Assembly: GCA_947454135.1 (NCBI GenBank)
Contig: CANGJI010000012.1
Coordinates: forward strand, 1 to 52,374
DNA from: Sphingomonadaceae bacterium
GTDB taxonomy: Bacteria > Pseudomonadota > Alphaproteobacteria > Sphingomonadales > Sphingomonadaceae
Direction: 5' to 3'
Length of the DNA: 52,374 nucleotides
Shown one piece after another: positions 14,953-15,105 of this stretch; position 1 is the first letter of the stretch, and each line of letters starts with the position of its first letter. The translations under genes and the position numbers were made by a program. Below the pieces are notes generated by a model that did not search any database, was not told the DNA's origin, and was given only the letters and a program-made list of their open reading frames with translations.

Positions 14953-15105
14953 GAATCATCCGGGACTCACCGTCAAGCAGCGACTCGCTGGATTCCGGCG
15001 AGTCGCAGCGCCTCTCAAGGTGAGAACGGAACGAGTCCGCGCCTACATCTGGAGTCTGCCGATTCCGCCGCACCCCATATCTGGTGGGTGTGGCCGACCA
15101 GATTC
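14953..15105. promoter_or_regulatory. Cluster of nine GANTC sites in the ccrM upstream region
   Basis: GANTC starts are at 14953, 14964, 14982, 14991, 15000, 15033, 15052, 15061 and 15101. Several are 9 bases apart. All lie in the gap between the rnhB stop and the ccrM start, where the ccrM promoter and leader must be. In Caulobacter, methylation of GANTC sites in the ccrM promoter region tunes its transcription, but only a pair is known there. No TTAA-N7-TTAA CtrA box was seen in this gap. Confidence 0.75.

What the first reader, a model, noticed from the sequence alone, without database searches (positions are those of the whole stretch)
14953..15105. Nine GANTC sites packed into the ccrM upstream region
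Nine GANTC sites occur in 153 bp, several at 9-bp spacing, all in the 214-bp gap before ccrM. By base composition alone about one per 290 bp would be expected, and neighbouring coding sequence looks nearly free of them. Known ccrM promoters in Caulobacter use two sites. The density suggests an unusually strong methylation switch, or a sink for CcrM or a methylation-sensitive regulator such as GcrA. Basis for the role is inference; the sites are seen.
Basis: partly seen in the sequence, partly recalled or inferred. Interest (0 to 1): 0.75.

Follow-up and report, generated by a model that had tools for sequence, protein, structure and literature searches.

The report
Methylase gene promoter packed with its own sites
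The switch region of the gene for the DNA-marking enzyme CcrM is crowded with the enzyme's own target sites, two of them inside the predicted promoter; many related bacteria keep a similar layout, which suggests that the gene senses its own marking.

Summary
Nine GANTC sites lie at 14953-15105, all in the 214-bp gap between rnhB and ccrM. In 452 kb sampled from this genome (13%), the next densest 153-bp stretch holds three.

Relatives keep the crowding. With near-duplicates removed, the 300 bp upstream of ccrM hold on average 6.6 sites in 145 Sphingomonadaceae loci, 5.5 in 19 loci of other Sphingomonadales families and 3.8 in 45 loci of other alphaproteobacteria.

The sites are placed, not scattered. 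A -35-like TTGAC is followed by a GANTC starting exactly 19 bp on in 126 of 146, 13 of 19 and 27 of 45 loci. With a 17-bp spacer that site would occupy -16 to -12 and abut a weak -10. Upstream lie a GANTC dyad (27 of 30 Novosphingobium loci) and a distal module. Many relatives, not the window's species, carry a DnaA box over the predicted start.

Best reading: a ccrM promoter built around CcrM's own sites, probably read by GcrA-sigma70. Start site, reader and sign are inferred. Caulobacter ccrM is reported to have two sites, so this is an elaborated variant of a known kind.

The parts
13762..14916 (-). ccrM coding sequence (384 aa; N6_N4_Mtase plus RAMA domains)
   Evidence: Pfam; best solved relative is CcrMI 6pbd, E 3.9e-157; NCBIfam CcrM model NF050803 scores 619.8 bits, below its cut-off of 830
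14917..15130 (-). 214-bp rnhB-ccrM gap that holds all nine GANTC sites
14971..14976 (-). TTGACG, predicted -35 element
   Evidence: coordinates; TTGAC in the 300 bp upstream of ccrM in 146 of 146, 19 of 19 and 42 of 45 non-redundant loci. TSS not mapped
14948..14953 (-). CACTTG, predicted weak -10 element (17-bp spacer); its first base is the last base of a GANTC
   Evidence: position by alignment; the window lacks the T at -7 that most relatives have, and the consensus scanner finds no promoter here
14964..14968 (.). GANTC 1 in the spacer, just behind the -35
   Evidence: GANTC at this position in 27 of 30 Novosphingobium loci
14953..14957 (.). GANTC 2 in the spacer, predicted -16 to -12, abutting the -10
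   Evidence: at exactly +19 from TTGAC in 126 of 146, 13 of 19 and 27 of 45 loci
14980..15006 (.). GCGACTCGC-N9-GCGAGTCGC dyad with three GANTC at 9-bp spacing (14982, 14991, 15000); both arms carry the GcrA extended motif YGAKTCG
   Evidence: dyad in 27 of 30 Novosphingobium loci and 7 of 128 other family loci; folds at -14 kcal/mol, z -4.6, as single-stranded DNA
15024..15037 (-). GACTCGTTCCGTTC, most conserved part of the distal module (includes the GANTC at 15033)
   Evidence: module pattern in 108 of 158 family loci; in 12 genomes 9 matches, 8 of them upstream of ccrM
15038..15105 (-). rest of the distal module with GANTC at 15052, 15061 and 15101 and a conserved CCACACC element
   Evidence: alignment; 15061 is poorly conserved
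15131..15883 (-). rnhB (ribonuclease HII), upstream gene in the same direction
   Evidence: Pfam

Best explanation
This is the promoter region of ccrM, built around CcrM's own methylation sites. Shown by sequence comparison: a -35-like TTGACG is followed by two GANTC sites, the second starting 19 bp after the T of TTGAC. Inferred: with a 17-bp spacer this is a sigma70 promoter whose second GANTC lies at -16 to -12 and abuts a weak -10, so that the methylated adenines sit where sigma and a spacer-bound factor would touch. Inferred: GcrA bound to sigma70 reads the methylation state of these sites, helped by GcrA-type sites in the upstream dyad. Passage of the replication fork makes the whole array hemimethylated and permits ccrM transcription; CcrM then re-methylates its own promoter and helps to close the window of expression, as reported for Caulobacter. 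Extra sites would sharpen or delay the response, because more marks have to be restored. In many relatives a DnaA box over the predicted -10 and start would hold the promoter shut while DnaA is active. Sign and reader are untested.
For: Conserved placement: GANTC at exactly +19 from TTGAC in 126 of 146, 13 of 19 and 27 of 45 non-redundant loci, against 7 GANTC anywhere at +5 to +24 behind 262 TTGAC copies downstream of the ccrM start. Selection on the methylation site itself: at +19 in 30 Novosphingobium loci the site is GATTC 15, GACTC 8, GAATC 2, none 5; at -10 it is GANTC in 30 of 30 and at -28 in 29 of 30 (shifts up to 2 bp allowed). In the eight closest loci the GA and TC columns are invariant 29 of 36 times against 63 of 163 other columns, p 5e-6. 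GANTC is the most enriched of 16 palindromic pentamers upstream of ccrM relative to its CDS: 25x, 32x and 9x in the three groups. In loci selected for TTGAC-N1..5-GANTC, A at -11 is kept in 108 of 114, 16 of 17 and 28 of 30, and T at -7 in 16 of 17 and 29 of 30 outside the family. The two-site core occurs in 11 of 14 genomes, 11 of its 13 matches directly upstream of ccrM, reversed control 0. GcrA is found in 193 of 196 order genomes. Literature, passages only: GANTC between -10 and -35 goes with activation at 40-60 min in Caulobacter (PMC4287350); the ftsZ GANTC lies between -35 and -10 and methylation activates it (PMC3708114); the ccrM promoter has two GANTC and is expressed when hemimethylated (PMC10073500, PMC2217572).
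Against: No TSS, methylation or expression data. The consensus scanner finds no sigma70 promoter in the gap, and the stricter pattern with T at -7 does not match anywhere in this genome, ccrM included. GcrA was not found in the window's own genome (93% complete) nor in one near relative reported 99% complete; the control also rang in Sulfolobus, so the model is not perfectly specific. The window's two spacer sites do not fit YGAKTCG, and that motif is not enriched upstream of ccrM in Sphingomonadaceae outside the Novosphingobium set (66 of 819 upstream sites against 92 of 655 elsewhere). 18 of 45 other-alpha loci lack the +19 site. The window has no DnaA box and no TTAACCAT CtrA site, so the DnaA part applies to relatives only.
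Confidence: 0.55

Rival explanations
1. Pure negative feedback: methylation of the array blocks RNA polymerase or an activator directly, with no GcrA, and ccrM is on only while the promoter is hemi- or unmethylated.
For: A GANTC abutting the -10 could change polymerase contacts directly; Caulobacter ccrM is described as transcribed from the hemimethylated state (PMC2217572, PMC10073500, passages). GcrA's extended motif is absent from the two spacer sites in the window.
Against: In Caulobacter, spacer GANTC sites go with activation (PMC4287350, PMC3708114, passages), and GcrA is near-universal in the order. The dyad arms fit the GcrA motif.
Confidence: 0.25
2. The dyad and distal module are operators for an unknown dimeric regulator, and the GANTC letters there are part of its binding motif or tune it by methylation.
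For: Nearly perfect 9-bp arms (fold), arms kept more than the centre (-28 in 29 and -10 in 30 of 30 loci, -19 in 19 of 30), and conserved non-GANTC letters in the distal module (CCACACC, TTTCGTTC).
Against: The dyad is common only in the Novosphingobium set (7 of 128 other family loci), and the core promoter is conserved without it. No such regulator was sought or identified.
Confidence: 0.1
3. Sink or decoy: the array only titrates CcrM or a methylation reader.
For: The high local number of sites.
Against: Positions are fixed relative to a promoter and number varies (2 to 11 in the family); about nine sites are few next to roughly 3,000 expected genome-wide at 0.96 per kb (extrapolated).
Confidence: 0.05
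4. No function: GANTC is purged from coding DNA and a non-coding gap simply escapes this.
For: GANTC is depleted in the window (50 against 237).
Against: Other non-coding DNA in the 452-kb sample never exceeds 3 per 153 bp, and shuffles of the gap do not reach 9; positions are conserved.
Confidence: 0.01

Closest known systems
Caulobacter crescentus ccrM promoter (two GANTC sites, CtrA-activated, transcribed when hemimethylated; PMC10073500, PMC2217572, passages)
   Same: CcrM's own promoter carries CcrM sites, so methylation can feed back on the methylase gene.
   Different: Nine sites instead of two in the window, two of them in the predicted spacer; no TTAA-containing CtrA site in the window's gap. 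The Caulobacter sequence itself was not aligned here.
GcrA-dependent methylated sigma70 promoters (ctrA P1, mipZ, podJ; Haakonsen 2015 and Wu 2018, not held; seen through PMC7987155, PMC3667746, PMC7403470, passages)
   Same: GANTC between -35 and -10 with a weak -10, and YGAKTCG in the window's dyad arms.
   Different: Spacer sites do not fit YGAKTCG in the window; dependence on GcrA was not tested; many more sites.
Sphingomonadales ctrA upstream regions (1-5 GANTC in 300 bp; PMC8116508, passages)
   Same: A cell-cycle gene of the same order with several GANTC upstream.
   Different: ccrM upstream regions are denser (family mean 6.6, up to 11) and have fixed core positions; that paper counted ctrA, not ccrM.
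Predicted DnaA motifs upstream of ccrM in species without CtrA sites there (PMC2877005, passages)
   Same: An exact DnaA box upstream of ccrM in 83 of 146 family loci.
   Different: Here the box has a fixed place over the predicted -10 and start (51 of 59 boxes at +28/+29), which points to repression; it is absent in the window.

Membership tests
GcrA-sigma70 methylated promoter | GANTC between the -35 and -10 elements | tested here: met
   two sites at 14953 and 14964 inside the predicted spacer; the -35/-10 themselves are predicted
GcrA-sigma70 methylated promoter | extended motif YGAKTCG at the promoter site | tested here: inconclusive
   not at the two spacer sites, present in both dyad arms upstream of the -35
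GcrA-sigma70 methylated promoter | GcrA encoded in the genome | tested here: inconclusive
   not found in the own genome (93% complete); found in 193 of 196 order genomes and 6 of 8 genomes in a search of the own genome and seven near relatives
GcrA-sigma70 methylated promoter | transcription depends on GcrA and on methylation | not testable with these tools
   needs expression data
ccrM autoregulatory promoter | GANTC sites directly upstream of ccrM, conserved in relatives | tested here: met
ccrM autoregulatory promoter | the gene encodes a GANTC methylase | tested here: met
   by homology only: 6pbd CcrMI E 3.9e-157, Pfam domains; NCBIfam CcrM model below its cut-off; activity not tested
Caulobacter-type (CtrA-activated) ccrM promoter | CtrA site (TTAACCAT or TTAA-N7-TTAA) upstream of ccrM | tested here: not met
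   no TTAA in the window's gap (read); TTAACCAT in 42 of 158 family loci, 0 of 1418 background pieces

The most novel reading that the evidence does not exclude
Across Alphaproteobacteria the ccrM gene is run by a self-referential core promoter in which the methylase's own recognition site is a fixed promoter element at -16 to -12, so that the enzyme's product directly sets the strength of its own -10. Sphingomonadaceae have expanded it to as many as eleven sites and in many species placed a DnaA box on the start, making a timer that is released by the replication fork and counts restored methyl marks.
Probability: 0.35. Interest if true: 0.78.

Novelty: new variant of a known kind. Interest (0 to 1): 0.6.

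Why it matters
CcrM timing is central to how alphaproteobacteria couple gene expression to DNA replication, and most of what is known comes from Caulobacter, where CtrA drives ccrM. In sphingomonads ctrA is reported as dispensable (Sphingomonas melonis, cited in PMC8116508, passage), so another timer is needed. A fixed GANTC inside the predicted core promoter, conserved well beyond the family, gives a simple candidate that can be tested site by site, and explains what the crowded array may be for.

Tried and rejected
Chance and base composition: rejected. A general effect of non-coding DNA: rejected within the 13% sampled. The cluster as a feature of rnhB: rejected, since it stays with ccrM where rnhB is 450 bp or more away; what lies between was not examined. 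A structured RNA: Rfam gave only two hits far below their gathering scores. A terminator or consensus promoter: none found. GcrA motif enrichment as a general explanation: holds for the Novosphingobium set (66 of 241 upstream sites against 5 of 138 elsewhere) and other Sphingomonadales families (31 of 112 against 3 of 30; first spacer site 14 of 18), not for the other Sphingomonadaceae (66 of 819 against 92 of 655) or other alphas overall (36 of 191 against 33 of 204). A strict core pattern with T at -7 gave no match in the own genome, not even at ccrM. The distal-module pattern matched in 8 of 12 genomes, and its reversed control matched 5 times in those 12 genomes, so single matches away from ccrM mean little.

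Sampling limits: the genus set L001-L030 is the 30 best matches of 97 genomes with one, window included; the named set is the best 80 of 590; other Sphingomonadales (20 loci) and 20 family loci were chosen by hand across families or genera; other alphas are 47 of 165 matching genomes, 27 best-scoring plus 20 chosen. Sets overlap between collections: one search dropped 12 of 158, 1 of 20 and 2 of 47 as near-duplicates; counts were made before that. One search counts TTGAC copies, loci.

Full report
What was checked. The window holds ccrM (13762-14916, minus strand; N6_N4_Mtase and RAMA domains; best solved relative CcrMI 6pbd, E 3.9e-157) downstream of rnhB (15131-15883, minus strand). The 214 bp between them hold nine GANTC sites. 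The named loci nearest to it by CcrM are Novosphingobium (for example L031, 93% identity); the window's genome is 3.39 Mb in 151 contigs and 93% complete.

More than chance. GANTC is depleted in the window (50 against 237 in dinucleotide shuffles), yet nine lie in this gap. None of 20,000 shuffles of the gap reached nine. In 452 kb of this genome (13%) no other 153-bp stretch holds more than three.

Conserved, and part of ccrM. Upstream of ccrM (300 bp) the mean number of GANTC is 6.6 in 145 Sphingomonadaceae loci (range 2-11; 130 have five or more), 5.5 in 19 loci of other Sphingomonadales families (4-8) and 3.8 in 45 loci of other alphaproteobacteria (0-8), near-duplicates removed. In the ccrM coding sequences the rate is 0.2-0.5 per 300 bp. 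Of 16 palindromic pentamers GANTC is the most enriched upstream in all three groups. Where rnhB lies 450 bp or more away (41 of 95 loci with rnhB located) the sites remain next to ccrM.

Anatomy, read towards ccrM. (1) Core: TTGACG (14971-14976), then GANTC at +8 and at +19, then CACTTG. TTGAC is present in the 300 bp upstream in 146 of 146, 19 of 19 and 42 of 45 loci, and a GANTC starts at exactly +19 in 126, 13 and 27 of them. As a control, 262 TTGAC copies downstream of the ccrM start have only seven GANTC anywhere between +5 and +24. In loci chosen for TTGAC-N1..5-GANTC, the base after the second site is A in 108 of 114, 16 of 17 and 28 of 30, and outside the family a T follows at +28 in 16 of 17 and 29 of 30. 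With a 17-bp spacer these are A-11 and T-7 of a -10 element whose -12 is the last C of the GANTC. The window lacks the T, and neither a consensus scan nor the strict pattern finds it. (2) Middle: a dyad GCGACTCGC-N9-GCGAGTCGC (14980-15006) with three GANTC 9 bp apart; the dyad is in 27 of 30 Novosphingobium loci but 7 of 128 other family loci. A TTAACCAT CtrA half-site occurs upstream of ccrM in 42 of 158 family loci, mostly without the trio (34 of 42), and in 0 of 1418 background pieces; the window has none. (3) Distal module: about 80 bp with up to four GANTC and conserved other letters (CCACACC, then GACTC-N-TT-N-Y-GTTC), found in 108 of 158 family loci. (4) In relatives, an exact DnaA box upstream of ccrM: 88 of 158 family loci against 1 of 1418 background pieces, 0 of 20 and 3 of 47 in the other groups; of 59 boxes near the core, 51 start at +28 or +29, over the predicted -10 and start. 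The window has none.

Selection is on the methylation site itself. At +19 in 30 Novosphingobium loci the site is GATTC 15, GACTC 8, GAATC 2 and missing in 5: the centre changes while GA and TC stay. In the eight closest loci GA/TC columns are invariant 29 of 36 times against 63 of 163 for other columns (p 5e-6), and the -35 6 of 6.

Specificity to ccrM. TTGACN{2,4}GANTCN{4,7}GANTCA occurs in 11 of 14 genomes, 13 matches in all, 11 directly upstream of ccrM; the reversed control gives none. The distal pattern gives 9 matches in 12 genomes, 8 of them upstream of ccrM; its reversed control gives 5.

How it most likely works. Shown: the conserved placement of GANTC relative to a -35-like hexamer upstream of ccrM. 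Inferred: that this is the ccrM promoter, that GcrA-sigma70 reads it, that fork passage and re-methylation open and close it, and that DnaA holds it shut in species with the box. In Caulobacter, spacer GANTC sites go with activation at 40-60 min (PMC4287350), the ftsZ site lies between -35 and -10 and is most active when methylated (PMC3708114), and ccrM is described with two GANTC and expression from hemimethylated DNA (PMC10073500, PMC2217572); passages of these papers were seen.

Compared with what is known. A ccrM promoter with CcrM sites is known. What I did not find described is the fixed GANTC at +19 from the -35 across the class, the sphingomonad dyad and distal module, and the DnaA box on the start; the searches were and 68 of an open-access library that lacks most subscription papers, and supplements could not be read. 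PMC2877005 had already predicted DnaA motifs upstream of ccrM in species lacking CtrA sites there and lists CcrM sites upstream of cell-cycle genes in supplements not seen. Verdict: a real and conserved feature, a new variant of a known kind.

Noticed in passing
G000 (own genome): GcrA (PF07750) was not found in the window's own genome nor in near relative G065 (reported 99% complete), though 193 of 196 genomes of the order have it; assembly gap or real loss was not decided.
   Followed up: partly
window 1-52374: GANTC is depleted almost five-fold in the window (50 against 237 in dinucleotide shuffles).
   Followed up: no
L047, L055, L061 and other Sphingomonadaceae loci, upstream of ccrM: An exact DnaA box TGTGGATAA sits at a fixed place over the predicted ccrM -10 and start; the window's clade lacks it.
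   Followed up: yes
L041, L049, L061, L062, L077 upstream of ccrM: A CtrA-type TTAACCAT site lies about 28 or 38 bp upstream of the -35 in many loci that lack the GANTC trio.
   Followed up: partly
G022:C163:539-1603: A second CcrM-like gene at 60% identity in a genome that also has a 79% copy.
   Followed up: no
L200 (G119:C1:1914665-1915777): The ccrM match in this one-contig genome of the order contains two in-frame TAA codons over the aligned stretch.
   Followed up: no
window 18995-20512, minus strand: A 506-aa protein with an Amidase_2 domain and a peptidoglycan-binding domain and a long C-terminal part without a Pfam match; it may be a lysin.
   Followed up: no
L248 and L249: The only two matches of the two-GANTC core pattern away from ccrM in 14 genomes; the ORFs there were listed, targets not identified.
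   Followed up: partly
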